The translations under genes and the position numbers were made by a program. The notes under the pieces are model-generated. The model was not told where the DNA came from, ran no database searches, and saw only the letters and a program-made list of their open reading frames with translations. From assembly GCF_000226095.1 (NCBI RefSeq), contig NC_016474.1, positions 248,001 to 312,000 on the forward strand: a stretch of DNA of 64,000 bases, read 5' to 3'. The stretch comes from Thermothelomyces thermophilus ATCC 42464 (taxonomy: Eukaryota; Ascomycota; Sordariomycetes; Sordariales; Chaetomiaceae). This document shows positions 2,404-32,128 of this stretch, in pieces (position 1 is the first letter of the stretch; each line of letters starts with the position of its first letter).

Positions 2404-2851
2404 TGTGACGAACCCAACTCAGACTTCTTCTGAAAGGGTCCAGACGGAGGTGGGTGAAGCAGGACAAGCAGGCAGGTCGTCTGAGGGATTCGGTGAAGCC
2501 AAAGGGTTCACAACAACACTTAGAGTTGTCTCTCACAGTAATCAGCAATGCTTGGTATGAGTACTGTGATTGTGATTGTTACCACTGGTGAACTCCCAGA
2601 GTCCACCATAACGAGTGACTAGCTAGCTATATATACACAATTGTCTGTCCTTCTTCAATAGTTATCACCAGTACCACTCCTCCTTTCACTTCGTGATTCT
2701 GCGTTGTCGACGGTGACATGTTATTATCACCAGTGAAGACCTTAGTCTTGGCGGTGATAATCTTCTGATTGGTCCGTCAAGTGATTGGCTGTCGGAATGT
2801 CCCGCGTCCTGGCTGCAGCCTGCCAGGCCGCCCATGTGCTTATTCGTGACA
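2404..2851 (-). mobile_element. Solo LTR of the chromovirus family
   Basis: This 448-bp sequence begins TGTGACGAACCC and ends CGTGACA. It is flanked by the 5-bp direct repeat CTAGA at 2,399-2,403 and 2,852-2,856. The first 230 bp or so (R-U5 side of this minus-oriented LTR) nearly match the LTRs of the full element at 2,972-10,483. The U3 side is different and carries ATTATCACC/GGTGATAAT repeats instead of GCGATC repeats. It shows little RIP, so it arrived after the surrounding gypsy sequence had been mutated. Solo LTRs form by recombination between the two LTRs of one element. Confidence 0.9.
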
Positions 2852-2971: not shown

Positions 2972-3385
2972 TGTGACGAACCCAACTCAGACTGCTTCTG
3001 AAAGGGTCCAGACGGAGGTGGGTGAAACGGGACAAGCAGGCAGGTCGTCTGAGGGATTCGGTGAAGCCAAAGGGTTCACAACAACACTTAGAGTTGTCTC
3101 TCACAGTAATCAGCAATGCTTGGTATGAGTACTGTGATTGTGATTGTTACCACTGGTGAACTCCCAGAGTTCGCCAGAACGAGTGACTATATACAATTTC
3201 CTTGTCCTTTCCCCCTTGAGTCTTGATCGTGCGATCGCTGCTGCGATCCTGCGATCGTTACCCAAGTGCTCGTCTTGATCGAAGTGCGATCACTGCGATC
3301 ACTTCCTGATTGGTCCTTAGGTCTTGTGGTTCCTGATTGGTTCTGTGCGCCTTGCCGGGTCGCCTTATGCAGCCAAATCGTGACA
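2972..3385 (-). repeat. 3' LTR of the recent chromovirus
   Basis: This 414-bp direct repeat starts TGTGACG and ends GTGACA in plus-strand order. Five GCGATC hexamers (3,231, 3,243, 3,251, 3,286 and 3,295) cluster in the U3 part, which faces the opposite-strand frame at 3,518-4,156. The U3 could therefore act as a promoter in either direction (inference). Confidence 0.93.
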
Positions 3386-3400
3386 CGATGCCCCTCCTTC
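3386..3400 (-). other. Polypurine tract next to the 3' LTR
   Basis: On the element's sense strand this reads GAAGGAGGGGCATCG directly before the LTR. That is the position and composition of a plus-strand primer in Ty3/gypsy elements. The RIPped relative has a comparable AAAGAGGGGGTATCA before its right LTR at 31,677. Confidence 0.75.
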
Positions 3401-3517
3401 AGGTCTTTCGTCCTCGAAAGACTCCGGTCCGTTTCAAATAGCGCCATCATCCCCTGTCTGTACGTAATTGCGTTTCCCAGTTTCTTCCTTCCTTTGCCTT
3501 CCCACGATGTTGTCGAG

Positions 3518-4156
3518 ATGGCTGATCGTGTGAGAAAGAAGTCGAAATCTAAACCTGCTGCGTCGACTCTTCGTGCCAACCATCTCCTGGCCGCGATTCT
3601 CTCCTCGGATAATCTTTTAACGATGCGTCCTTGTACGCCGTGCGAGTCCAAAGGCCTTAGTTCGTGCGAGGTTTCGAAAAGCGATTCTTCTCGATGCGCA
3701 GAGTGCGTTCGCAACAAGCGTTCGAATTGTGACGTTCTTGGCGTTTCTCCTGCTCAGCTTCGGTCTATTGCGGCTCAGCATCAAAAACTTGAGGATGAGC
3801 TTATGGCTGCTGAGGAGCGGGTCCTTCGTCTCCGGAAACAGAAGCGAATGTGGTTTGAGAAGATGATGAGGGCTATCGCTCGGGGTATCGACAGTGTGGA
3901 GGAGTTGGAGCGAGTGGAACGTGAGGAGGCTGCGGCGGCGGTGGCAGCGGAAGCTTCTGGGGTTACTGCGTCTTCTTCGACCCCATCTCGCCTGTCCGCC
4001 GATTTCGGACAGCTTTGGGATGCCGTGTATCCTAAAGTTCCTTTGGATCCGTCCTTGCTGGCCGATTTCGGGTTGGTTTCGGGTTCGTCGCTTTCGGTCG
4101 GTCAGGGTTCCTCTGGTGGAACTGCTGAAGTTTCTCGGGGCAACTCAGGTTCTTAA
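3518..4156 (+). CDS. Opposite-strand frame in the chromovirus: Zn2Cys6-like cluster plus coiled coil
   Basis: This open frame of 212 codons runs against the retroelement, between its 3' LTR and the end of pol, and overlaps the last part of pol by about 125 bases. The frame is open upstream to 3,266, but an ATG inside the LTR is less likely than the one at 3,518 (MADRVRKKSKSK). After a basic start, residues about 40-75 hold six cysteines spaced C-x2-C-x7-C-x9-C-x2-C-x7-C. This is close to the fungal Zn(II)2Cys6 pattern (C-x2-C-x6-C-x5-12-C-x2-C-x6-8-C). A heptad-rich, charged helix follows (about 80-140), then an Ala/Ser/Thr-rich tail. The order resembles the DNA-binding end of Gal4-type regulators. 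A regulatory role, for the element or the host, is inference; it could also be an unexpressed passenger frame. Confidence 0.6.
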   Translation: MADRVRKKSKSKPAASTLRANHLLAAILSSDNLLTMRPCTPCESKGLSSCEVSKSDSSRCAECVRNKRSNCDVLGVSPAQLRSIAAQHQKLEDELMAAEERVLRLRKQKRMWFEKMMRAIARGIDSVEELERVEREEAAAAVAAEASGVTASSSTPSRLSADFGQLWDAVYPKVPLDPSLLADFGLVSGSSLSVGQGSSGGTAEVSRGNSGS

Positions 4157-7100
4157 CTGGTTCCCATGAGTTGTCTTCTGGCCCAAAATCAAGCCATTTG
4201 ACCAGGTACTGCAGTTCTCCGTTGATGATGCGTGAATCCAGAATTTCTTCGACGTCCCATTCTTCCTCTTCGTCCTCTGCTTCGATGTGCGTGGCAACCT
4301 TGGCGTTCTTTGGTGCTGGTTCGAGAAGTGAAATATGAAAAACATCCGTCCGTAGTCGCATAGATGACGGTAACGATAGTCGGTAGTTGGATGTCGAAAT
4401 TCGTTCTTTGATAACGAAGGGTCCGACCTTCTTGAAGTCCAGCTTCGTGCTTGGTCGTTTGGTTCGTAAGTTTCGTGCGATCAGGTAGACTTTATCTCCC
4501 CTCTCTAGGCGAGGTCCCTCGAGCCTGTGTTTGTCGTAGTAGTTCTTCATTCTGGTCTTGACAAACTCGAGTTCCTTCTTGAGCTTCTCGTGCAGTGCGT
4601 GCATCTGTTCTGCTTTGACTGCTGCTCTTGGCACTGTGACCTCTGGTCCTTGCCTAAGGTCTGCTTCATATCCGTAGTTCGCGAAGAACGGTGTGACTTT
4701 GGTCGTCTCCGTTGGCGTCGTGTTGTAAGCGAGTTGTGCTGTTGGCAACAGCATGACCCAGTCGTTTTGCTGGTAGTTGACGTAAGAACGGAGGTACTGC
4801 TCAACAACTTGGTTTAGTCGCTCCGTTTGTCCGTCAGTCTGTGGGTGATATGCCGTTGACAGCTTGCTGTTAACGCCCAATCGTTGCATTAACGCTTGCC
4901 AAAACTTCGATGCGAACTTGGTGTCTCTGTCGGTGATCCATTCTTGCGGCCAAGCATGCACTGATGCAACTTGCCGATAGATCACGTCTGCCAACTGTTC
5001 CGCTGTCCAGGACTCCTTGTAGGGAAAGAAATATGCCCACTTAGTCAGGCGATCTACTACAGTAAGAATACTGTCGTAGGTCACTCCTGTGGCCGTGTCC
5101 TTGGATTCTGGCAGCTTCGTAATGAAGTCCATCGTAACTGAACTCCATGGTTTGTCAGCTGTTGGCAGTGGCTGAAGTAGTCCATACGGCTTGTGTCGTG
5201 CCGTTTTGCTTCGATTGCAGATGTCGCAGTTCCGTACGACTTCCTTAACTCGTGTCGTCAACTGTGGAAAGTCGTAGTGTTTCTTGACTTGTGCGACAGT
5301 CTTCGTAACTCCTTTGTGTCCTCCGAGTTTCGACTCGTGGAGTTCTCGAATCATCCGCAGCTGTTGACCTTTGTCGTGGATGTACGCTTTGCCTCGGTAC
5401 CAGAGTTTCCCATCTTTCTCTTCTACTCCGTCAGGTACCACTGGTCCGGGTGCTGCTTGATACTGTGCCTCGTTGATCCTTTCTTCTCGAAAGATTGCGC
5501 AGCATTCGAGGAACGAGTCAAGTGGATCATCTTCCACGGGTGTCTGCGTTTCGTGATGCAGCGTTCCGTCTATTCGTTCCTTGAATAACGGTAGCGTTGT
5601 TCCCGTTCGTCCTTTCGTGTGATCCGTTCGTCGGCTTAAGATGTCCGCTCGTGCGTTCTCTTTGCCCTTCTTGTAGCGGATCTCGAAGTTGAATTCCGCG
5701 AGGAATTCTGCCCATCGTATTTGTCGTCCGTTGAGTTCCTTCGTCGTCGTGAAGTATCGCAAATTCTTGTGATCCGTATATACTTGTACCGGTTCAATCG
5801 TGCCGCTGAGGTATGGTCGCCATTCCTTGAAAGCTTCGACAATCGCAAGTAGTTCCTTGTCGTGGATCGGATAATTGAGACGTGGTCCATCGAGCTTCTT
5901 TGAAAAGAAGGCTACAGGATGTAGCTTCCCTTGTTCGTCTCGTTGTCCCAATTGTCCTCCGATGGCGTAGTCTGAAGCGTCCGTTTCTACCTCGAATGGC
6001 TTCTTGGGGTCTGGCAGTACCAGTACTGGATCCTCGGTGATGGCGTCGCGAATCTGCGTAAATGCCTGCTCGTGTTGCTCTTCCCATTGGAATTCAGCGT
6101 TCTTCTTGGTAAGTTCGTGCAAAGGTCGTGCGATCGCTCCAAAGTTCCTGAGGAACATCCGGTAGAAGTTTGCAAATCCGATGAAGCTTCGTACTTCCGT
6201 GACTGACGTCGGTCGTGGCCAATTCTTGATAGCTTCAACCTTTGAAGGTTCCATCCGGATTTGTCCTGGGGATATCTCGTATCCCAGAAACACCGTTTTC
6301 CTGACGTGGAATTCGCTCTTTCCCTTGTTGACTGATAGCTTGTACGCGTGCAGCGCGTCCAGCACTGCTTTTACGTGCTTCCGGTGTTCGTCCATCGTCT
6401 TGGAGAAGATGAGTATATCGTCGAGATAACATACCGCAAATTTGTCGAGAAAGGGTCGGATAGCTTGATCAATCAGGGCTTGGAACGTTGCCGGCGCGTT
6501 CGTAAGTCCAAATGGCATGACGAGGTACTCGTAGTGGCCATAAGGTGTCCTAAAGGCCGTTTTCCACTCGTCGCCTTCTTTGATCCGTATGTGGTTGTAG
6601 GCCGATGGCAAGTCAAGACGCGTGAAATATTGGGCTCCTGCCAACTGATCTCGGAGCCGTGAGATCAGCGGTAACGGGTATCGATTTTTCACGGTCTGTT
6701 CGTTGAGTTGCCGATAGTCGACGCATAACCGTAGCTTTCCGTCTTTCTTGGGCACAAACAGGATTGGGTAGCCTGCTGGCGATGTCGACGGGCGGATATG
6801 TCCTCTTCGAAGGTTCTCCTCCAAATATCGCTTAAGTTCTTCGTTCTGTGTCTGGCTCGTGTGGTAAATCTTGAAGAACTTCAGTCGTGCTCCTTCCTTG
6901 AGCTTGATCTCGTGATCCCATGGGCCGTGTTCTGGTAATCCTTCCAGATGTTTCGGTTCGAATGCTGGGTGCCCTTCGTATTCCTTCGGTACTTCCCCAG
7001 TCTTGTCTCGTCCCTCGGTTTTCTGATAGTATGCGAACTTGGTTCCGTCCATGGCGATACTGGCGATTTCTCCTGTCTCAACCCACTGCTCCCATTGCAG

Positions 7101-7538
7101 TGCTCCGCATTCGTCAACGGAGAGAACAGCTATCGGCGATTCAGCTCGTTCCTCCTGTCGCAACGTCGGTATCGTTATGCCGCTTCTTCCAGAGTCCGTA
7201 GTGGTCTGCCTGCCACTGTCCGTCTCTTGCGGTGGATCCGTGGGACATGCCTTTCCCTGAGCATCGTCCGCTCGCGATCCTTGCGCGCTCCCCATCTCGC
7301 TGGTCGAATACGACTCCATTCGGGGTCGCAGGTGGCCACCATTCTTCCAGCTGATGTCCGGGTCGTAATCTTCATGCCATGGTAATCCCAATATCATGTC
7401 TTTGTCGTCGCCCATGTCCACGATGCTGAATACGACTGCTGTGGTTTTCCCTGCCACAGTGATGTCGATCGGTTCGGTCTCCCTGCGTACCCATTGTGTC
7501 GGAAATGGCCCTTTGACTATGCCATGCTTCCGCTTCAT
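4032..7538 (-). CDS. pol: Chromovirus pol: reverse transcriptase, RNase H, integrase, chromodomain
   Basis: This is a long frame of 1,168 codons. Reverse transcriptase is marked by FVPKKDGKLRLCVDYRQLN and by the catalytic YLDD box. RNase H follows (the stretch with VETDASDYAIGGQL). The integrase has an HHCC zinc-binding N-terminus (GHKGV...CDICNRSK) and a DDE core (TMDFITKLP onward). The C-terminus carries a chromodomain (WDVEEILDSRI...YLVKWLDFGPEDNSWEP), which defines chromoviruses and can bind methylated H3K9 heterochromatin. That fits an element sitting inside an RIP block. The protease segment, with its active-site DSGAE, lies between gag and this frame. Confidence 0.93.
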   Translation of the reverse strand: MKRKHGIVKGPFPTQWVRRETEPIDITVAGKTTAVVFSIVDMGDDKDMILGLPWHEDYDPDISWKNGGHLRPRMESYSTSEMGSAQGSRADDAQGKACPTDPPQETDSGRQTTTDSGRSGITIPTLRQEERAESPIAVLSVDECGALQWEQWVETGEIASIAMDGTKFAYYQKTEGRDKTGEVPKEYEGHPAFEPKHLEGLPEHGPWDHEIKLKEGARLKFFKIYHTSQTQNEELKRYLEENLRRGHIRPSTSPAGYPILFVPKKDGKLRLCVDYRQLNEQTVKNRYPLPLISRLRDQLAGAQYFTRLDLPSAYNHIRIKEGDEWKTAFRTPYGHYEYLVMPFGLTNAPATFQALIDQAIRPFLDKFAVCYLDDILIFSKTMDEHRKHVKAVLDALHAYKLSVNKGKSEFHVRKTVFLGYEISPGQIRMEPSKVEAIKNWPRPTSVTEVRSFIGFANFYRMFLRNFGAIARPLHELTKKNAEFQWEEQHEQAFTQIRDAITEDPVLVLPDPKKPFEVETDASDYAIGGQLGQRDEQGKLHPVAFFSKKLDGPRLNYPIHDKELLAIVEAFKEWRPYLSGTIEPVQVYTDHKNLRYFTTTKELNGRQIRWAEFLAEFNFEIRYKKGKENARADILSRRTDHTKGRTGTTLPLFKERIDGTLHHETQTPVEDDPLDSFLECCAIFREERINEAQYQAAPGPVVPDGVEEKDGKLWYRGKAYIHDKGQQLRMIRELHESKLGGHKGVTKTVAQVKKHYDFPQLTTRVKEVVRNCDICNRSKTARHKPYGLLQPLPTADKPWSSVTMDFITKLPESKDTATGVTYDSILTVVDRLTKWAYFFPYKESWTAEQLADVIYRQVASVHAWPQEWITDRDTKFASKFWQALMQRLGVNSKLSTAYHPQTDGQTERLNQVVEQYLRSYVNYQQNDWVMLLPTAQLAYNTTPTETTKVTPFFANYGYEADLRQGPEVTVPRAAVKAEQMHALHEKLKKELEFVKTRMKNYYDKHRLEGPRLERGDKVYLIARNLRTKRPSTKLDFKKVGPFVIKERISTSNYRLSLPSSMRLRTDVFHISLLEPAPKNAKVATHIEAEDEEEEWDVEEILDSRIINGELQYLVKWLDFGPEDNSWEPVKNLSCPEKLQQFHQRNPDRPKATNPKPTRNRPARTDPKEL

Positions 7539-7780
7539 TCTCTAGGGTATCCGCAGCTGATTCACAAGTGTCGGCGAAATCAGATTCATCTCTGCTCCAC
7601 TGTCCACTAGTGCGAGCATTTCGTGCTGTTTCCACTGTGCTGTTATCCACAGCCGCTTGTCTTGCCGCCGTCGTCCAAAGATTGCGGCGATTTCCCATGT
7701 TTCTGCCGGGAGGTCTCGGTATAGTGGTCTCTTGCGCCAGTTCCTCCTGTACTGCGCTACCACTCGCCGCTGCGCGGGCG

Positions 7781-10042
7781 TTAATGGTTTCCGGGCCCCT
7801 CGAAGGGCCCTGACCCGTTTCCCAGGTCAGTGCTGACCTCTTCGGTTGTTCGGCTGATAGCGGCTTCGTCGATCGTGCTCATTTCCGTGAGCCATTGAGT
7901 GCTTGCGGCTTCCCACCATTGGGTCCGTTCTGCTTTCCGTCGTGCGTGCCATAGCTTCATCTGAAGCTCCCGAATTCGCAATTTCTTTTCGTCCGCGTGA
8001 TAGAGGCAATCGTTGCTCCAGCACGAGTCCCATGTGTCTCGTCCCGTTCCGCAGTGCCTAGGCCAGGCTCGTCTTGGAACTATCGTGATGCTTTCTAGAT
8101 CGCGGGCTTCGATCTTCCAAAGCAATTCGGCCGCTCTGTTTCCTGCATCGTAGACCCATTCCACAGGGCACAAGCCTCCGTCCCTGTTTTCCTGTCGGGT
8201 CGGCCAGTGATTGTTTTCGAATTTGTCGCGGAAGTGGTATCGGCATTCGTGTGCCACACACTGGAACCAGGGCACTTGCGCATGTGCCTCGTGTCGAGGG
8301 TGCAGTCGCGTGGCGTCGCCTGGAAGGTATTGGAACTCTTTCCCGAATCCTTCCCACTGTACGTGGACCGTGGGTACTCCAATGCTGAGGTAGGAGTGTT
8401 TCTCCCAATAGCTTTCCCACGTACGCTCATCTTTTCCGCGGTTCGCGCGCATGAACTGGTATTCGGGGTTCCGTACGTCGTGGCTGAGTTGCTGATCGTC
8501 AAAGTGCTCGGCGTAGCTATCGGGCCCATCATATGTCACAGGCTGTTCCCCTTTGATGGTTTCCACGATACGTCGGAGTTCCCTCATTTCGTCCTTCATC
8601 TCATCGCTCTGCTGGGCGAGTCGAGTCAAGCGCCCATCCCGTTCGCGCAGTTCCGTGTTGAGTCGGAAAACTTCGTTGCGGTACCATTCGATTCGTTCCT
8701 GGAGGAATAGAGCATTGGGTCCGGGTCTTTCGATTCCTTGGGTGTCGGTTGTCCACGATCCATCCCGCCTCTGCGTGACTGTGAAACCCCACTGCCTCAA
8801 GATTGGGAGAATCGAAATTGGCGGCGCATACTCTCCTGCCATGTCCCATTCGGCAAGACCTGTCTCTGGGTCCACAGTGACCAGTTCGGAGTACGGTGCT
8901 TGTTCGTCTTCACCGTTGCCGTCGTGTCCGAGACTGTCCGTGTCACTGTCCTTGTCTTCGTAGCTCGTGGCTGCTACTTCGGTGACGTTCTTGGTGGTTT
9001 CGTCGATGTCCGCGATTTCTTTTCCAGGGACTGGCTTCCATTCTTTCTTCGGGCTCCGGCATTCTCGCTTGTAATGCCCTTTCTTTCCGCAGTTGTAGCA
9101 GGTAACATTGGACTTGTCTTTGGTCGCCTTCTTCTGGTCCTGCTTCTGCGCTGCGTCCACATCCATGGCTCCGGGGTGCGTCCCGTACGAGGTACTAACG
9201 TACGCTCGCTTTTTCTTGTCGTTGGCCTTAACCGTGGTTCCGTTCATTCGACCTCGTTTCTGCTGCTCTCGTGCGTAGAGTCGATCATCGATCCTGATGG
9301 CCTGCGCGATGTATTCATCCAGAGTCTCAGGCCGATCGTACTTGTACAGCTCGTCCTTGACCTTTTCCTTCAAGCCGTTGTAGAACAGTTGCATCAACGC
9401 CTCGTCGTTAAGCTGAGACTTGAGCATGTCCTGTCTGAACTGTGCGGCGTAGGAGGCTGCTGACTTGGTCTGTCGGAGATTGGCGAGTCTTTCTTGCGCA
9501 TGAATCTTCTCGTCTTTGTCGCCAAAAACTTTCCGAAGCTCTTCTTCGAAACGGTCGTAAGATCGGAAGACTGCCCGTGTAAACGCGTCTCGATCGTCTT
9601 CGTCTTCCTCCGTGAGATAGTCGTTCCACGTAGGCTCGAACCATCTGAGTGCCTTGCCCTCTAGTCTCGTGGCTGCGTAGAGGACTTTGGCTTTGTCGTC
9701 CGGAAACTTGTCGTCATTGAGCCGGAAGTAGGATCGGAGGTTTGTCAGGAATCCTGCGAGATCCTCCTTGGTTCCTCCGTATTTACCAGGTGGTTCGATC
9801 TTGATGCGGCTCGCCTTGGCGGTCTCGAGCGCTTCGATTTTGGCGTAGGCTTCGTTGACCAACTTCTGCGAGTACTTTTCGCGGTTCTCGAGTTCCTTGA
9901 TTCGAGCTTGAGCAGCCTTGTCTCTCTGGTCCAACTCCTGGATCCGCTGCTGGAGTTGACCAAGCTGAGCGAGCAGCTGTTCGGCCGTGACGTTGGTAGC
10001 CATGTCGATGTCGAGGTCGAAGTCACCTCCGTTCTGAACCAT
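7781..10042 (-). CDS. gag: Chromovirus gag with long post-knuckle extension
   Basis: This frame of 753 codons begins 27 bases after the element's 5' LTR. An N-terminal coiled coil (about residues 20-75) leads into a Ty3-type capsid region (about 85-290). A CCHC zinc knuckle (CYNCGKKGHYKREC) lies near 313-326. Most Ty3/gypsy Gags end soon after the knuckle, but here about 420 further residues follow. They include a second heptad region and a Cys/His/Trp-rich part near the end (FQCVAHECRYHF; DSCWSNDCLYH) that may bind metal. The RIPped relative at 24,541-32,128 retains traces of the same extension, so it is a family trait and not a local fusion. Its function is unknown. Confidence 0.88.
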   Translation of the reverse strand: MVQNGGDFDLDIDMATNVTAEQLLAQLGQLQQRIQELDQRDKAAQARIKELENREKYSQKLVNEAYAKIEALETAKASRIKIEPPGKYGGTKEDLAGFLTNLRSYFRLNDDKFPDDKAKVLYAATRLEGKALRWFEPTWNDYLTEEDEDDRDAFTRAVFRSYDRFEEELRKVFGDKDEKIHAQERLANLRQTKSAASYAAQFRQDMLKSQLNDEALMQLFYNGLKEKVKDELYKYDRPETLDEYIAQAIRIDDRLYAREQQKRGRMNGTTVKANDKKKRAYVSTSYGTHPGAMDVDAAQKQDQKKATKDKSNVTCYNCGKKGHYKRECRSPKKEWKPVPGKEIADIDETTKNVTEVAATSYEDKDSDTDSLGHDGNGEDEQAPYSELVTVDPETGLAEWDMAGEYAPPISILPILRQWGFTVTQRRDGSWTTDTQGIERPGPNALFLQERIEWYRNEVFRLNTELRERDGRLTRLAQQSDEMKDEMRELRRIVETIKGEQPVTYDGPDSYAEHFDDQQLSHDVRNPEYQFMRANRGKDERTWESYWEKHSYLSIGVPTVHVQWEGFGKEFQYLPGDATRLHPRHEAHAQVPWFQCVAHECRYHFRDKFENNHWPTRQENRDGGLCPVEWVYDAGNRAAELLWKIEARDLESITIVPRRAWPRHCGTGRDTWDSCWSNDCLYHADEKKLRIRELQMKLWHARRKAERTQWWEAASTQWLTEMSTIDEAAISRTTEEVSTDLGNGSGPFEGPGNH

Positions 10043-10069
10043 GACAGAACAAAGGGAGTGGTAACAACG

Positions 10070-10483
10070 TGTGACGAACCCAACTCAGACTGCTTCTGAA
10101 AGGGTCCAGACGGAGGTGGGTGAAACGGGACAAGCAGGCAGGTCGTCTGAGGGATTCGGTGAAGCCAAAGGGTTCACAACAACACTTAGAGTTGTCTCTC
10201 ACAGTAATCAGCAATGCTTGGTATGAGTACTGTGATTGTGATTGTTACCACTGGTGAACTCCCAGAGTTCGCCAGAACGAGTGACTATATACAATTTCCT
10301 TGTCCTTTCCCCCTTGAGTCTTGATCGTGCGATCGCTGCTGCGATCCTGCGATCGTTACCCAAGTGCTCGTCTTGATCGAAGTGCGATCACTGCGATCAC
10401 TTCCTGATTGGTCCTTAGGTCTTGTGGTTCCTGATTGGTTCTGTGCGCCTTGCCGGGTCGCCTTATGCAGCCAAATCGTGACA
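10070..10483 (-). repeat. 5' LTR of the recent chromovirus
   Basis: This 414-bp repeat appears identical to 2,972-3,385. Gag starts 27 bases inside it. No convincing tRNA-complementary primer site of the usual TGG type was seen in that short gap, so the priming mode is unresolved. Confidence 0.93.
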
Positions 10484-10932
10484 CCTATATTAGGTTACCT
10501 AGGGAGGAACAGATTATTTAAAATGTTTTAATAAGACTATTACTAGGACTTTATATCCCTAGATATAAAGAGACTTATAAAGAACTACTATATATATTAA
10601 AGGGCTAAGGTTTTATATTGACTATGATAAGGACTCCTCTAGCCCCTACCCATCATTAACCACTTCTAGAAACGGATTTCTATCGATTTTATAGCTAATC
10701 TCCCTATATAAGACGAGAATTTACCCTAGTACCTCATAATAATTACTAACCGGCTATTAAAGTATATCTAACTCGAAGCTATATCTTTAATAGGAGTTAA
10801 GATATATATACTCTATTTCTAGGATATATAATATTAGTTTTATAGATTCCTAATATAAATCATTACTAATTATAATTTAGATAAGAGTTATATAGACACC
10901 CTACTTATTATACCCTTTTATAGTATATACTT

Positions 10933-24540: not shown

Positions 24541-24968
24541 TGTTATAGAAATATACATATAGGACGCCGCCTAAGCTGCCTCCCTAACAGGCCAATAAGA
24601 TAACAGGAATAATAGGCTAATTAGAATAGGATTACACTTAGCAAGAAATGATCCTAGCAGAGGATTACTAGCTTACAATATAAGCTAGGTAAGCCAATAT
24701 AGAGGATTACCATAACTATTAGTAATCCTAGGATTATATATACATATAGATAGTCACTCGTTATAATAGACTCTAGGAGTTTACTAGTAATAGTAACCTA
24801 CAATTATAGTACTCCTACCAAGCATCGCTAACTACTATAAGAGATAACTCTAGTATTATTATAAACCCTTTAGCTTTACCAAATCCCTTAGACAACCTAT
24901 ACACTTGTCCCACTTAATTTATCTCCATCTAAACCCTTTTAGAAGAAGTCTAAGTTAGGTTCGTTATA
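24541..24968 (+). repeat. Left LTR of the chromovirus fossil
   Basis: This 428-bp repeat begins TGTTATAGAAATATAC. Its last 250 bp or so align with the right LTR and with the LTRs of the intact copy. The first 150-180 bp (U3) do not align convincingly with the right LTR. Confidence 0.7.
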
Positions 24969-27900
24969 CGTTGCTATCACTCCCTTTGTTCTATTATAGC
25001 TTAGAATAGAGGTAATTTCGACCTCGACATTGACATAACTACTAACGTTATAGCCGAATAGCTACTTGCCTAGCTTGGTCAACTCTAGCAGCGGATCTAG
25101 GAGTTAGACTAGAGAGATAAGGTTGCTTAAGCTCGGATCAAGGAACTCGAGAACGGCGAAAAGCACTTATAGAAGCTGGTTAACGAGGCCTATACCAAAA
25201 TCAAGGCACTCGAAGGCGCCAAAGTAAGCTATATCAAGATCGAACTACCTGGCAAATACGGAGGAACTAAGGAGGATCTTGTAGGATTCCTAACGAACCT
25301 CTGATCCTACTTCTGGCTTAATGACGACAAGTTTCTAGATAATAAAGCTAAAGTCCTCTATATAGCTATAAGACTAGAGGGCAAGGCATTTAGATAGTTT
25401 GAGCCTATATAGAATGATTATCTTATCAAGGAAGACAAAGATAACTAAGATGTATTTATATAAGTAGTCTTTCGATCTTATAACCGTTTTAAAGAAGAGC
25501 TTTAGAAGGTTTTTAGTGATAAAGATAAGAAGATTTATATATAAGAAAGACTTACTAGTCTCTAATGGACTAAGTTAATGACCTCTTATACTATATAGTT
25601 TAGATAGGATATACTTAAGTCTTAGTTTAATGATAAGGCGTTAATGTAACTATTCTATAATAGCTTAAAGAAAAAGGTTAAAGACAAGCTATATAAGTAT
25701 AACTAGCTTAAGACCCTAGACGAATATATTATATAGGCTATTAGAATTGATAATCGACTTTATATACGAGAGTAGTAGAAACGAGGTCGGATAAATAGAA
25801 CTATAGCTAAGGCTAATAATAAGAAAAAACAAATATACGTTAGTACCTCGTATAAGATATATCCTAGAGCTATAGATATAGATATAGCATAGAAGCAGGA
25901 CCAAAAGAAGATAACTAAAGATAAGTCTAATATTACCTACTATAACTATAGAAAGAAAGGGTATTATAAGTAAGAATGTCAAAGCCCAAAGAAAGACTAG
26001 AAACTAGTCCCTAGAAAGGAAATTATAGCTATTAACAAAACTACTAAGGATATTATCAAAGTAGTGGCTATAAGCTACAAAAACAGGGATAGTGATACAG
26101 ATAGTCTTAGATACAATAGCGATAGTAGAGACGAACAAGCACTATACTCCGAACTAGTCACTATAGACCTAGAGATAGGTCTTGCCAAATAGGATATAGC
26201 AGGAGAGTATATACTACTAATTTCGATTCTCCTAGCCTTAAGGCAGTAGGGTTTTATAGTTATATAGAGGCGGGATAGATCGTAGACGACCGATACCTAA
26301 GGAATCGAGAGATCCGGACCTAATGTTCTATTTCTCTAGGAACAAATCGAATAGTACCGTAACAAAGTTTTCCGGCTTAATATAGAACTGTACGAATAGG
26401 ATAGACGCTTGACTCGACTTACCTAGTAGAGCGATAAGATAAGGGACGAGATAAGGGAACTCTAACATATCGTAGAAACTATTAAAGGGGAATAGCCTAT
26501 GATATATAATAGGCCTGATAGTTACACCAAGTATTTTGACGATTAGCAACTTAGCTATAACGTACGGAACCCCGAGTACTAGTTTATATATACGAACTGT
26601 AGAAAAGACAAACGTATATAGGAAAACTACTAGAAGAAATACTCCTATCTTAGTATTGGAGTGCCTATAGTCTATATATAGTGGGAAGGATTTAGAAAAG
26701 AATTCTAATACCTTCTAAGTAACGCTATATAACTATACCTATAATATAAGGTATATATATAAATGCCTTGGTTCTAGTATATGTTATATAAATGCCGATA
26801 CTACTTTCGCGACAAATTCGAAAACAATTACTAGCTAACCCGATAAAGAAATGAAGATAGAAGCCTCTACCCTATAAAATAGGTCTATAATATAGGAAAT
26901 AGAGCGGCCGAATTGCTCTAGAAGATTAAAGCTTGCGATCTAGAAGGCATTACGGTAGTACTAAAACGAGCCTAGCCTAGGTACTATAGAATAGGACGAG
27001 ACATATAGGACTTGTACTAGAGTAATGACTACGTCTACTACGCGGACGAAAAGAAATTGCGGATCTAGGAGCTTTAGATGAAGCTATGGCACGTATAATA
27101 GAAAGCAAAACAGACCTAACGATAGGAAGCTATAAGTACTTAATAGTTTATGGAAATGAATATAATCGACAAAGCTACTATTAGCTAAATAACTAAAGAG
27201 GTTAGCACTAACCTAGGAAACGGGTTAGAGCCCTTTGAAGGGCCTAAAAACCATTAACGCCTGTATAGTAGCAAGTGGTAGTATAATATAGGAGGAACTA
27301 GCGCAAGAGACCACTATATCGAGACCTCCCGGCAGAAACATAAGAAATCGCCGTAATCTTTAGACGATGGTAGTAAGACAAGCAATTATAGATAATAGTA
27401 TAATAGAAATAGCATGAAATGCTTGTATTAGTAGATAGTAGAGCAGAGATAAACCTGATTTCGCCGACACTTGTAAATTAGCTACAGATACCTTAGAGAA
27501 TGAAGTAGAAGTATAGCATAGTCAAAGGGCTATTTTCGATATAATAGGTATATAGGGAGACTAAACCGATTAATATCACTATAGTAGGGAAGACTATAGT
27601 AGTTATATTTAGTATCGTAAATATAGGTAATAATAAAGATATAATATTAGGGTTATTATAGTATAAAGATTATAACCTAGATATTAGCTAAAAGAATAGT
27701 AGCTACCTATGACCCCGAATAGAGTTATATTTAACTAGCGAGATAGGAAGCGTACAAGGATCGCGAGCAGACGATACTCAAGGGAAGGCATATCCTATAG
27801 ATCTACTACAAGAGACAGACAATAGTAGGCAGACCAATATAGACTCTAGAAGAAGCGGTATAACGATACTAATGTTATAACAAGAGGAACGAGCTAAACC

Positions 27901-30900
27901 GCCGATAGCTATTCTCTCTATTAATAAATGTAGAACACTATAACTAGAGTAGTAGGTTAAGATGGAAGAAATTACTAGCATTGCTATAGATAGAACCAAG
28001 TTTATATACTATTAGAGAACTAAGAGACGAGATAAGACTAGGAAAGTACTAGAGGAATACGAAGGACACCTAACATTCGAACCGAAGCATCTAGAAGGAT
28101 TACCGGAACACGGCCTATAGGATTACGAGATTAAGCTTAAGGAAAGAGTATAACTAAAGTTCTTTAAGATTTACTATATAAGCTAGATATAGAATAAAGA
28201 ACTTAAGCGATACTTAAAGGAGAACCTTTAAAGAGAATATATCTACCTGTCGACATTGCTAGCAGGCTACCTAATCCTATTTATACCTAAGAAAGACAGA
28301 AAGCTATAATTATATGTCGATTATTAGTAACTTAATAAACAAACTATGAAAAACCAATACCTATTACTACTAATCTTATAGCTCTAAGATTAGTTAGCAG
28401 GAGCCTAATATTTTATATATCTTAACTTGCTATCGGCCTATAACTATATACAGATCAAAGAAGGCGACGAGTGGAAAACAGCCTTTAGGACACCCTATAG
28501 TCATTACAAGTACCTTATTATACCATTTGGACTTACAAACACGCTAGCAATGTTCTAAGCCCTAATTAATCAAGCTATTTAACCCTTTCTTAATAAATTT
28601 ACAGTATGTTATCTCGATAATATACTTATCTTCTCTAAGACGATAGACAAATACTAGAAGTATGTAAAAGTAGTGCTAGACGTATTATATATATATAAGG
28701 TATTAGGTAACAAGGAAAAAAGTAAATTCTACGTTAGGAAAATAGTATTTTTAGGATACGAAATATCCCTAGGACAAATCCGGATAGAACCCTTAAAGGT
28801 TAAAGCTATTAAGGATTAGCTATAACTAACGTTAGTTATAGAAGTACGAAGTTTTATTAGGTTTACAAACTTCTACCAGATGTTTATTAGGAACTTTAGA
28901 GCGATCGTATAACCTTTATACGAATTTACCAAGAAGAACACTAAATTCTAATAGGAAGAGCAATACAAGCAAGCATTTACGTAGATCTATAACGCCATTA
29001 CTAAAGATCTAGTACTAGTATTGCCAGACCCTAAAAAGCCATTCGAGGTAGAGATAGACGCTTCAGACTATGCTATCGGAGGATAGTTAGAATAACAAGA
29101 CAAACAAAGGAAGCTATATCCTATAGCCTTCTTTTTAAAGAAGCTCGACAGACTACATCTTAATTATCCGATCTACAATAAAGAACTACTTACGATTGTC
29201 GAAGCTTTTAAGGAATGGTAACTATACCTTAATGGTATAATTAAACTAGTATAAGTATATACAGATTATAAGAATTTACGGTACTTTATAATAACAAAGG
29301 AGCTTAATAGATAACAAATATAATAGGCAGAATTCCTTATGGAATTTAATTTTAAGATCCGCTATAAGAAAGGTAAAGAGAATGTATAAGTAGATACCTT
29401 AAGCTGATAAATAGATCGTATAGAAGAATAAACGGAAATAACATTACCATTATTTAAGGAACAAATAAATAGAACGCTATATTACGAAACGTAGACACCT
29501 ATAGAAGATAATCTACTTGACTCGTTCCTAGAATATTATATAATCTTTTAAAAAGAAAGGATTAACGAGGTATAGTATTAAGTAGTACCTAGACTAGTAA
29601 TACCTAATGGAGTGGAAGAAAAAGATAGGAAACTCTAGTACCGAGGTAGAGCGTATATCTATAACAAAGATCAATAACTATAAATGATTTAAGAACTCTA
29701 CGAGTCGAAACTCGGAGGACACAAAGGAGTTACAAAGACTATCGCATAAGTCAAGAAACACTATAACTTTCCATAGTTAACGGTACAAGTTAAGGAAGTC
29801 GTACGGAGCTACGACATCTGTAATCGAAGCAAAACGGTATAATACAAGCTATATAGGCTACTTTAGCTACTGCTAATAGCTAACAAACTATAGAGTTTAG
29901 TTACGATAGACTTTATTACAAAACTGCTAGAATCTAAGGATATAGCTATAGGAGTAATCTATAATAGTATTCTTACTATAATAGATCACCTAACTAAATA
30001 GGTATATTTCTTTCCCTATAAGGAGTCCTAGATAGCTAAACAGCTAGTAGACGTAATCTATCGGCAAGTCGTATTAATATACGCTTAGCTATAAGAATAG
30101 ATTACCGATAGAGATACTAAGTTCATATCGAAGTTCTAGTAAGCGTTAATATAACAATTAGGCGTTAATAGTAAGCTATTAACGGTATATTACCTATAAA
30201 CCAATAGATAAACGGAGCGACTAAACTAAGTTATTAAACAATACCTCCGTTCTTACGTTAACTACTAACAAGACGACTAGGTTATACTATTACTAATAGT
30301 ATAACTTACCTATAATATAATACTAATAGAAACGACTAAAGTTATACTATTCTTTATAAACTATAGATACAAAGTAGACCTTAGGTAAGGACTAGAGGTT
30401 ATAGTGCCGAGAGCAGTAGTCAAAGTAGAACAAATGTATATACTATATAAGAAGCTTAAAAAAGAACTTAAGTTTATTAGAACTAGAATAAAGAACTACT
30501 ATAATAAATATAGGCTTAAGGGACCTTGCCTAGAGAAGGGAGATAAAGTCTACCTAATTATACGAAACTTACAAACTAAACGACTAAGTATAAAGCTAGA
30601 CTTTAAGAAGGTCAGACCCTTTATTATTAAAGAACGAATCTCGACATTTAACTACCGACTATCGTTACCATCATCTATACGACTACAGATAGATGTTTTT
30701 CATATTTTACTTCTCGAACTAGCACTAAAGAACGCCAAGGTTGCTATGTATATTAAAGTAGAAGACAAAAAGGAAGAATAGGACGTTAAAGAAATCCTAG
30801 ATTTATATATTATTAATAGAGAACTATAGTACCTAGTTAAATAGCTTGATTTTAGACTAGAAGATAACTTATAGGAACTAGTTAAGAACCTAAGTTACCC

Positions 30901-31676
30901 TAAGAAACTAGAGTAGTTCTACTAGTAGAATCCTAACTAGCTATAAGAATCGGCTCTAAAGCCTATTCCCTAATAGAGAAAGAAGGGAACCTGCTAGAAT
31001 TAGGACCGGGATCTAACCCGATCGACTCCTAATCGAGCATATCAAAAGCACCTAACGCCTAAGCCTAACCCGCGAGGGTCTATATCTCTAATATTAGTAG
31101 AGGAGTATCTAGTTCTTCCTCCTCCTCTAAATGAGCTACGCTACGACGAAAAACTTCGGTACCACAATTGTATAGAGATTGCTATAAACGACGTAATCGA
31201 CTTAAACGGCTTAGCGTCTAAGCGAGAAGCGCCTTAGTCTTAGTAATCTCTTTCAAAACCTTCTCCTGCTCTAATAAATTTAAAAGAACTAAGATAGTTA
31301 GTAACCTAAGACTATAAAGGAAAATAATAAAGAACCTATAGGTATCTATAATGTTTAGGCTATTATACTTCTTACTTATATAAATGTAGTTCTAATACTT
31401 GTTTAAACTCTCTATTATTATATAATGCTTTTATAGCTTTATATTCTAATAATGCTTATAAGGTATAGTAACCTTATAACCTTTTTATTTAATCTTAATC
31501 GTAATAATATATTATTTACGCTTAGAATCGTAATAGTTCCTAGAAATATAATTAGCTATAGCAGAAGGAAGCTAGTAGAAGAAGGATATTACCTATAGGG
31601 GAAAAAGGGGTATTAGTAATATTTAAAACAAGTCATAAGAAGCTTTTAGGTCAAAAGCCCTAAAGAGGGGGTATCA

Positions 31677-32128
31677 TGTCACGAGCCAACTATATACCGC
31701 GACCCGGTAGGGTATAGCAGGCTAAACAAGCTACCAATCAAGAAGGGCACAGAGCAAGGCTAATACGGGATCACTAGGGAGCACGGGCTACCATAGGCGA
31801 ACAATTACTAAAAGGGAAAGATAACGGAGGATAGCCAGCTACCAAAGGCAATCCTAAGGCAGGCTAGAAGGGGACTATAAGCAACTAACAAAAGTATATA
31901 TACATGTAAATAATCACTCGTTATAGTAGACTTTAGGAGTTTACTAGTGATAGCAACCTACAATTACAGTACTTATACCAAGCATCGCTGGCTACTATGA
32001 GAGGCAACTCTAGTATTGTTGTAAACCCTTTGGCTTCACCGAATCCCTTAGACGACCTGTACGCTTGTCCCGCTTAATTTACCTTCGTCTGAACCCTTTT
32101 AGAAGAAGTCTAAGCTGGGTTTGTTACA
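31677..32128 (+). repeat. Right LTR of the chromovirus fossil
   Basis: This 452-bp repeat begins TGTCACGAGCCAAC and ends GGGTTTGTTACA, preceded by the purine tract AAAGAGGGGGTATCA. It is less RIPped than the left LTR and has a different U3. Confidence 0.8.

What the first reader, a model, noticed from the sequence alone, without database searches (positions are those of the whole stretch)
3266..4156. Opposite-strand Zn2Cys6-like gene carried by a chromovirus
The recent LTR element carries an open frame on its antisense strand between pol and the 3' LTR. It has six cysteines spaced nearly as in fungal Zn(II)2Cys6 DNA-binding clusters, a basic N-terminus and a following coiled coil, the layout of Gal4-type regulators. 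The 3' LTR U3 lies directly upstream of it, so the LTR could drive it. Retroelements with antisense accessory genes are known in some viruses and plants, but a transcription-factor-like antisense product in a fungal element would be a distinct way for an element to control itself or its host. What is seen: the frame and the cysteines. What is inferred: expression and DNA binding.
Basis: partly seen in the sequence, partly recalled or inferred. Interest (0 to 1): 0.85.

Follow-up and report, generated by a model that had tools for sequence, protein, structure and literature searches.

The report
Antisense regulator gene in fungal retrotransposon
A jumping gene of a heat-loving fungus carries, on its opposite strand, a conserved gene for a protein predicted to fold like a fungal gene switch, and that gene is exchanged together with the neighbouring control region of the element as one block, which suggests that versions of the element may carry their own private control systems.

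Summary
The element (2972-10483, minus strand) is a Ty3/gypsy chromovirus with identical 414-bp LTRs; its antisense gene is 3518-4156 (+), 212 codons, between pol and 3' LTR. It is no chance frame: 99 database proteins match, the six Cys columns hold 512 Cys and 17 Tyr, and dN/dS between cassette types is 0.30-0.54. A model of the Cys cluster finds nearly only Zn2Cys6 DNA-binding domains in the PDB (16 of 17 weak Foldseek hits), though Pfam Zn_clus stays under its cut-off. The family includes Botrytis BRTN, so antisense genes of this kind are known. New here, as far as my searches reach: (1) four diverged versions in this genome hold a candidate antisense-strand intron at nearly one place and in one phase; (2) U3 plus the antisense gene form a swappable cassette: at least six strongly diverged types on a shared backbone; (3) the U3 of types A, B and G hold clear arrays of repeated GATC sites upstream of TATA; C and D weaker, E and F not convincing. 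Best explanation: an element-encoded regulator with its own operator, exchanged as a unit. Expression, DNA binding and regulation are inferred. The U3 diversity resembles a pattern left unexplained in Podospora crapaud elements.

The parts
2972..3385 (-). 3' LTR (414 bp); R-U5 side at low coordinates, U3 side next to the antisense gene
   Evidence: identical to 10070-10483, TSD CCTAT at 2967-2971
10070..10483 (-). 5' LTR, identical to the 3' LTR; TSD CCTAT at 10484-10488
3188..3193 (-). TATA box of the sense promoter (TATATA), at the edge of the part shared by the LTR types; function inferred
   Evidence: sequence; edge of the blastn match to other types at 3189-3203
3225..3300 (.). array of seven GATC-centred sites (five of them CGATC) in U3, between TATA and CCAAT boxes: candidate operator
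   Evidence: 7 observed, 1.66 expected, 0 of 1000 shuffles; top 6-mer GATCGC x6, 0 of 500 shuffles; positions 3225, 3233, 3245, 3253, 3277, 3288, 3297
3309..3340 (-). two CCAAT boxes (ATTGG on the + strand at 3309-3313 and 3336-3340); function inferred
   Evidence: two also in B L034, C, D and G, one in F L098 and A2 L042
3388..3400 (-). polypurine tract (sense GAAGGAGGGGCAT) directly upstream of the 3' LTR; assigned by eye
   Evidence: sequence
3403..3422 (.). inverted repeat GTCTTTCG/CGAAAGAC beside the polypurine tract, seen in the other types too
3518..4156 (+). antisense gene, 212 aa, Zn2Cys6-like protein of the brtn family
3632..3730 (+). six-cysteine cluster (residues 39-71)
3749..3880 (+). 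long helix after the cluster (residues 78-121), candidate dimerisation coiled coil
   Evidence: predicted
4032..7538 (-). pol: RT, RNase H, integrase, SH3-like, chromodomain; its last 125 nt overlap the antisense gene
7542..7763 (-). protease part of pol, cut off from RT by one in-frame stop (7542-7544) in this copy
7781..10042 (-). gag, 753 aa, with capsid domain and CCHC knuckle

Best explanation
The antisense gene encodes a dimeric, Zn2Cys6-like DNA-binding protein that regulates the element that carries it. It is transcribed from the U3 side of the 3' LTR (inferred; introns are indirect evidence), translated (supported by codon-level conservation), and binds repeated sites in U3 between the TATA and CCAAT boxes (inferred), thereby setting sense transcription, probably as a limiter, and perhaps its own. 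The regulator and its sites stay together because they lie side by side, and they are exchanged as one cassette between elements, most simply by template switching in reverse transcription (the exchange is shown as a pattern; the route is inferred). Different cassette types on one backbone would then act as separate regulatory specificities.
For: Real protein: 99 relatives, six Cys near-invariant with Tyr as the only substitute, dN/dS 0.30-0.54 in all 10 pairs of five types. Antisense expression: candidate introns in C, D, F and G, phase 1, 8 or 9 residues behind the sixth cysteine position; gene models of Canariomyces (P0145) and Chaetomium globosum (P0147) and environmental P0151 run straight across the junction predicted for C. 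DNA-binding fold: 16 of 17 Foldseek hits, of seven different proteins, are Zn2Cys6 domains; a second look at Foldseek's list by VIA gives 13 of 13 entries; the UniRef name of P0147 begins 'Zn(2)-C6 fungal-type do' (cut in the listing). Cassette: transversions per site of A against B, C and D are 0.0017-0.0023 in pol, 0.0035-0.0049 in gag and 0.010 in R-U5, against 0.21-0.285 between U3 of A, C, F and G and dS 1.3-2.0 between antisense genes (profile). Arrays: A GATC x7 and G GATC x6 (0 of 1000 shuffles each; top 6-mer 0 of 500 each), B ATGATC x7 (0 of 500). Gene type and adjacent U3 type agree in 71 of 72 loci, one undetermined.
Against: No expression or binding data. U3 and the gene are neighbours, so joint exchange is expected from linkage alone. 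A, B, D, E, F and G arrays all centre on GATC, which one shared factor could read. Arrays are not shown in every type: C is borderline without a chosen motif (7-mer 12 of 500, 6-mer 164 of 500; its TATCACC count, 0 of 1000, uses a motif picked by eye), D is modest (GATC 3 of 500, 6-mer 24 of 500), E has GATC x3 (29 of 500) and F none by the unbiased test (192 of 500). The canonical DNA-contact loop is not basic in most members, so the binding mode is open. Pfam Zn_clus is below its cut-off in every member tested, and single Foldseek hits are not significant (best E 0.27).
Confidence: 0.45

Rival explanations
1. Linkage only. The antisense protein works elsewhere (host genes, nuclear import, integration or silencing suppression). 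U3 changes because elements compete for host transcription factors, and the gene rides along because one template switch near the end of pol plus the strand transfer at R moves both.
For: Exact neighbourhood; exchange boundaries near R and at the pol end fit the reverse transcription scheme; Westerberg et al. 2024 propose such recombination for crapaud LTRs; nearly all arrays share a GATC core, and two U3 types lack a convincing array.
Against: The gene is under constraint, not a neutral passenger; type B exchanges U3 plus only the DNA-binding half of the gene while the rest is type A (one case); the product has a predicted DNA-binding fold.
Confidence: 0.37
2. The antisense transcript, not the protein, is the agent: it makes double-stranded RNA or interferes with sense transcription.
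For: Suggested for plant elements (PMC7264820, passages); an antisense RNA would be complementary to the pol end and U3.
Against: Protein-level constraint, near-invariant cysteines, intron removal that joins the frame. Both roles could coexist.
Confidence: 0.08
3. A recently captured host Zn2Cys6 gene fragment without function in the element.
For: The fungus has many Zn_clus genes (88 matches).
Against: Relatives in many fungal genera and in Boty elements, a gene of this family in each cassette type examined (E only in part), dN/dS below 1.
Confidence: 0.03
4. Chance open frame or artefact of pol overlap.
For: A 125-nt overlap with pol.
Against: The conserved part lies outside pol.
Confidence: 0.01

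Closest known systems
brtn, antisense gene of Boty-like retrotransposons of Botrytis cinerea (Zhao et al. 2011; title and passages in PMC7264820, PMC8365987, PMC4227169 only)
   Same: Antisense, between pol and 3' LTR of a gypsy element with chromodomain; same protein family (P0119, named Putative BRTN by UniRef, E 8.1e-34 with profile A1)
   Different: The passages seen mention no Zn2Cys6 fold, intron, or exchange with U3; the paper itself is not held, so I cannot say what it reports
crapaud LTR subfamilies in Podospora anserina (Westerberg et al. 2024, PMC10787394; abstract and sections 3, 8, 12 read, word search of the rest)
   Same: Many LTR types that differ in U3 while R-U5 is shared and the internal region does not follow the LTR type; same fungal order; template switching proposed
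   Different: A word search of its main text finds no 'antisense' and no 'zinc'; the cause is left open there. Whether crapaud carries this gene was not tested here
Antisense ORFs of plant Retand/Grande elements, TRP28 domain (PMC11963269, PMC7264820; passages)
   Same: Antisense gene between pol and 3' LTR, probable DNA binding, regulatory role suspected
   Different: No TRP28 match in the window protein; other element lineage
HBZ of HTLV-1 (mentioned in a passage of PMC11963269; details recalled)
   Same: Antisense gene near the 3' LTR coding for a nuclear regulator
   Different: bZIP, not Zn2Cys6 (recalled); virus of people, unrelated
Fungal Zn2Cys6 regulators (Gal4, Hap1, Put3, Leu3, Ppr1)
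   Same: Predicted fold of the Cys cluster and a following long helix
   Different: Element-encoded and small; sequence under the Pfam cut-off; basic loop is the second one
Immunity regions of lambdoid phages (recalled)
   Same: Works like: regulator gene and its operators exchanged as a block on a shared backbone
   Different: Analogy only; no repression was shown here

Membership tests
Fungal Zn2Cys6 (Zn_clus, PF00172) | six cysteines in two CX2C-X-C halves | tested here: met
   512 Cys and 17 Tyr of 529 letters in the six columns
Fungal Zn2Cys6 (Zn_clus, PF00172) | first loop of six residues (rule recalled; 20 of 20 own-genome Zn_clus domains) | tested here: not met
   Window protein has seven; types C and G and BRTN P0119 have six, F has eight
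Fungal Zn2Cys6 (Zn_clus, PF00172) | Pfam score at or above 21 bits | tested here: not met
   No match for P0001 at E <= 10; 17 of 74 members match, best E 0.018; 9 of 10 distant members, best 18.1 bits; 2 of 7 C-like, F and G sequences, best 16 bits
Fungal Zn2Cys6 (Zn_clus, PF00172) | binuclear cluster fold | tested here: met
Fungal Zn2Cys6 (Zn_clus, PF00172) | basic loop between Cys2 and Cys3 (DNA contact) | tested here: not met
   Mean net charge 0.31 in loop 1 and 2.01 in loop 2 of 74 members, against 4.15 and 0.50 in 20 own-genome Zn_clus domains
Fungal Zn2Cys6 (Zn_clus, PF00172) | zinc and DNA binding | not testable with these tools
   needs protein
brtn of Boty-like elements | antisense between pol and 3' LTR of a chromodomain gypsy element | tested here: met
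brtn of Boty-like elements | sequence homology to BRTN | tested here: met
   P0119 found by profile A1 at 8.1e-34; 30% identity over 93% of P0001
brtn of Boty-like elements | transcription in antisense | not testable with these tools
   no RNA data; introns are indirect evidence
Plant antisense TRP28 genes | TRP28 domain (PF04195) | tested here: not met
   not among the Pfam matches of P0001 at E <= 10
crapaud elements | U3 diversified, R-U5 shared, internal region shared across LTR types | tested here: met
crapaud elements | sequence membership of the crapaud family | not tested
   no Podospora DNA at hand

The most novel reading that the evidence does not exclude
The U3 plus antisense gene is an immunity module of a retrotransposon: each cassette encodes a self-regulator with a private operator, resident copies hold down elements of the same type, and elements that pick up a new cassette by template switching escape and burst. 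This would explain why many U3 types persist on one backbone, here and in Podospora crapaud.
Probability: 0.25. Interest if true: 0.92.

Novelty: new variant of a known kind. Interest (0 to 1): 0.77.

Why it matters
In the papers seen here, antisense genes of plant and fungal LTR elements have no known function. A DNA-binding fold, a conserved candidate antisense intron and joint exchange with U3 give a concrete, cheap-to-test role: a self-encoded regulator with its own operator. It could also explain the U3 diversity that was reported in Podospora and left open after RIP escape was not supported, and it would be a transposon parallel to phage immunity regions and to antisense regulators of retroviruses.

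Full report
WHERE IT LIES. The window is G000:C3:248001-312000 of a genome of 38,744,216 bases in 7 contigs. Relatives named MYCTH of Thermothelomyces thermophilus ATCC 42464 lie on contigs whose lengths equal those of C1, C2 and C6 here (10,931,058, 5,454,242 and 4,127,677), one with 99% identity, so the host is that fungus (Sordariales, Chaetomiaceae). Most older copies of the gene carry stops, mostly TAG, of the kind RIP leaves (the RIP reading is inferred).

THE ELEMENT. LTRs of 414 bp at 2972-3385 and 10070-10483 are identical and flanked by CCTAT on both sides. The element runs on the minus strand: gag 7781-10042 with capsid domain and CCHC knuckle, protease 7542-7763, pol 4032-7538 with RT, RNase H, integrase and chromodomain. 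In this copy pol is broken by one in-frame stop at 7542-7544, between protease and RT; the same junction has no stop in L037, L038, L039, L042, L044 and L045 and has it in L036 and several RIPped copies.

THE ANTISENSE GENE. The frame 3518-4156 (+) codes for 212 residues. Only 4032-4156 overlaps pol. A protein search gave 99 relatives at E <= 0.01, among them proteins of Colletotrichum, Cordyceps, Pyricularia, Gaeumannomyces, Fusarium, Hirsutella, Metarhizium, Cryphonectria, Microdochium and Chaetomium. A profile search gave 146, of which 120 are listed, including a Botrytis protein that UniRef calls Putative BRTN (P0119). In an alignment of all 100 proteins the six cysteine columns hold 512 Cys and 17 Tyr, nothing else; Cys to Tyr is what a C:G to T:A change gives, so the exceptions look like RIP damage (inferred). 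79 of 100 show the full six-Cys pattern; of the other 21, 13 lack part or all of the region.

CASSETTES ON ONE BACKBONE. Copies with other LTRs showed the main result. Along the element, type A (window) and types B (L031-L035) and C (L037-L039) share R-U5 and gag-pol almost without transversions, while U3 and the antisense gene are strongly diverged (which compared L032, L035, L037 and L039 of these). Numbers: transversions per site of A against B (L032), C (L037, L039) and D (L036) are 0.0017-0.0023 in pol, 0.0035-0.0049 in gag and 0.010 in R-U5; R-U5 of the C, G and F copies L102, L097 and L098 differs from A by 0.005-0.015; U3 of A, C, F and G differ by 0.21-0.285 in all six pairs; antisense genes of A, C, D, F and G differ by dS 1.3-2.0 and dN 0.41-0.88 in all ten pairs (ratio 0.30-0.54). 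For F and G the backbone rests on R-U5, on the pol end (94-95% identity over 1.2 kb) and, for F, on the RIPped second element of the window. The shared LTR part ends at about 3189-3203, at or just behind the TATA box; on the other side the shared part resumes at about 4093-4101 in C, D, E and F (start of the pol match) or at about 3840-3870 in B, so that B joins its own U3 and DNA-binding half to an A-type C-terminal half. B is closer to an environmental protein, P0009 (63%), than to A (59%), and C has a 79% relative in Canariomyces and a 61% one in Chaetomium, which suggests that the types are older than the species. A pol-end DNA search scored 40 of 893 candidates: 15 are A-like (98-100%), 25 are 94-96%. 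I fetched 9 of these 25: four C, three F, two G (typed by eye). Of 72 distinct loci with a typed antisense gene, 71 have the matching U3 next to it (A or A2: 61 of 62; B 6 of 6; C 3 of 3; D 1 of 1); one is undetermined.

ANTISENSE INTRON. In C, D, F and G the antisense gene holds a GT...AG stretch (C 66 or 69 nt, D 49, F 51, G 47 nt) that begins after one leftover T of a codon, 9 (C, G) or 8 (D, F) residues behind the sixth cysteine position, and its removal joins the frame. The C-type copy L102 then reads 196 residues without a stop. Points against or open: in F the stretch is itself open in frame, so splicing is not needed there; in G and D the donors are GTCCGT and GTTCGT, not the usual GTAAGT; of seven C copies four have the GT donor and three read AT, as RIP would leave it. 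Independent support: P0145, P0147 and P0151 align straight across the junction predicted for C, and the metagenome protein P0148 has 16 extra residues exactly there, as an unspliced reading would give. An intron on the strand opposite to the genomic RNA survives retrotransposition (known logic), and its presence speaks for a spliced antisense mRNA. A and B show no such stretch.

OPERATOR-LIKE ARRAYS. Upstream of TATA in the sense direction, on the near side of the CCAAT boxes, U3 holds repeats. A: GATC 7 times (1.66 expected, 0 of 1000 shuffles); top 6-mer GATCGC 6 times, both strands counted (0 of 500). B: ATGATC 7 times (0 of 500). G: GATC 6 times (0 of 1000); top 6-mer GATCAC 6 times (0 of 500). 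A2 (L042): GATC 6 times (4 of 500). D: GATC 5 times (3 of 500), top 6-mer 24 of 500. C: no GATC; TATCACC or its complement 3 times (0 of 1000, motif chosen by eye), unbiased 7-mer 12 of 500 and 6-mer 164 of 500. E: GATC 3 times (29 of 500). F: GATC 4 in L098 (5 of 1000) and 3 in L031 (27 of 500), but no enriched word by the unbiased test (192 of 500). So the array is clear in A, B and G, plausible in A2, C and D, and not shown in E and F. The R-U5 control has no enriched word. In A2, a diverged form of the A LTR, GATC and CCAAT sites align in place in the four copies compared, without gap columns at the sites in three of four; transitions are 4-12 of 65-74 site columns against 27-33 of 119-137 others, transversions 1 in each class.

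HOW IT MOST LIKELY WORKS. Shown: the antisense gene, its constraint, its predicted fold, the intron-like stretches, the joint exchange with U3, the arrays of A, B and G. Inferred: transcription from U3, zinc and DNA binding, binding to the own array, and the direction of regulation. A limiter that sits between CCAAT and TATA would be a natural self-control; an activator cannot be excluded. Joint exchange has a simple route: one template switch near the end of pol plus the strand transfer at R (recombination at the strand transfer is also proposed for crapaud LTRs in PMC10787394). Linkage alone can therefore explain why U3 and the gene move together; it does not explain why only this part of the element is so diverse. 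Long-lived variety on a homogenised backbone is what one expects if type matters for interaction among copies, as with phage immunity types (recalled analogy).

WHAT IS KNOWN. Antisense brtn in Boty (Zhao et al. 2011) is known to me here only through its title and through passages in PMC7264820, PMC8365987 and PMC4227169; a further passage names a BRTN-like transcript in Monilinia (PMC5987419). The function of such genes is called unknown in PMC7264820. Plant elements have other antisense genes (PMC11963269, passages). Crapaud in Podospora: 14 LTR subfamilies with differences concentrated in U3, RIP escape not supported, cause open (PMC10787394, abstract and sections 3, 8, 12). None of the papers that I opened links the two; the searches and their limits are under Tried and rejected.

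Noticed in passing
window 7542-7544: The pol frame of this copy is broken by one in-frame stop between protease and RT; six other copies examined lack it, L036 and several RIPped copies have it.
   Followed up: yes
window 2404-2851: A solo LTR of type C with a CTAGA duplication lies just beside the element; its U3 reads as in the C copy L102.
   Followed up: partly
window 24747-32128: A second, RIPped element whose two LTRs are, by eye, of different types (D-like and F-like), as reported for some crapaud copies, perhaps by gene conversion.
   Followed up: partly
window 3403-3422 and the same place in other types: An inverted repeat CTTTCG...CGAAAG beside the polypurine tract is present in all types looked at (damaged in RIPped E copies), with a paired T-A to G-C change between A/A2/B and C/D/G; the predicted fold shows the hairpin in most but not in F L098 and E L040; role unknown.
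   Followed up: partly
L097 about 843-905, and near the same place in L098 and L102: Possible further introns in the 5' part of the antisense transcript (in G: GTAAGT ... CTAAC ... TAG, by eye).
   Followed up: no
window 7784-9052 (gag residues about 331-753): The gag protein has some 420 residues behind the CCHC knuckle with no Pfam match over its cut-off.
   Followed up: no
type F exon 1 (L098): Its cysteine cluster matches DUF3716 (PF12511) under the cut-off (17.5 of 22 bits); a possible lead to the origin of the cluster.
   Followed up: no
gene models MYCTH_2313167 (P0008) and MYCTH_105130 (P0149): Annotated models of this gene family in the host are truncated or oddly joined: one starts at an inner Met, one lacks the second half of the cluster.
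   Followed up: no
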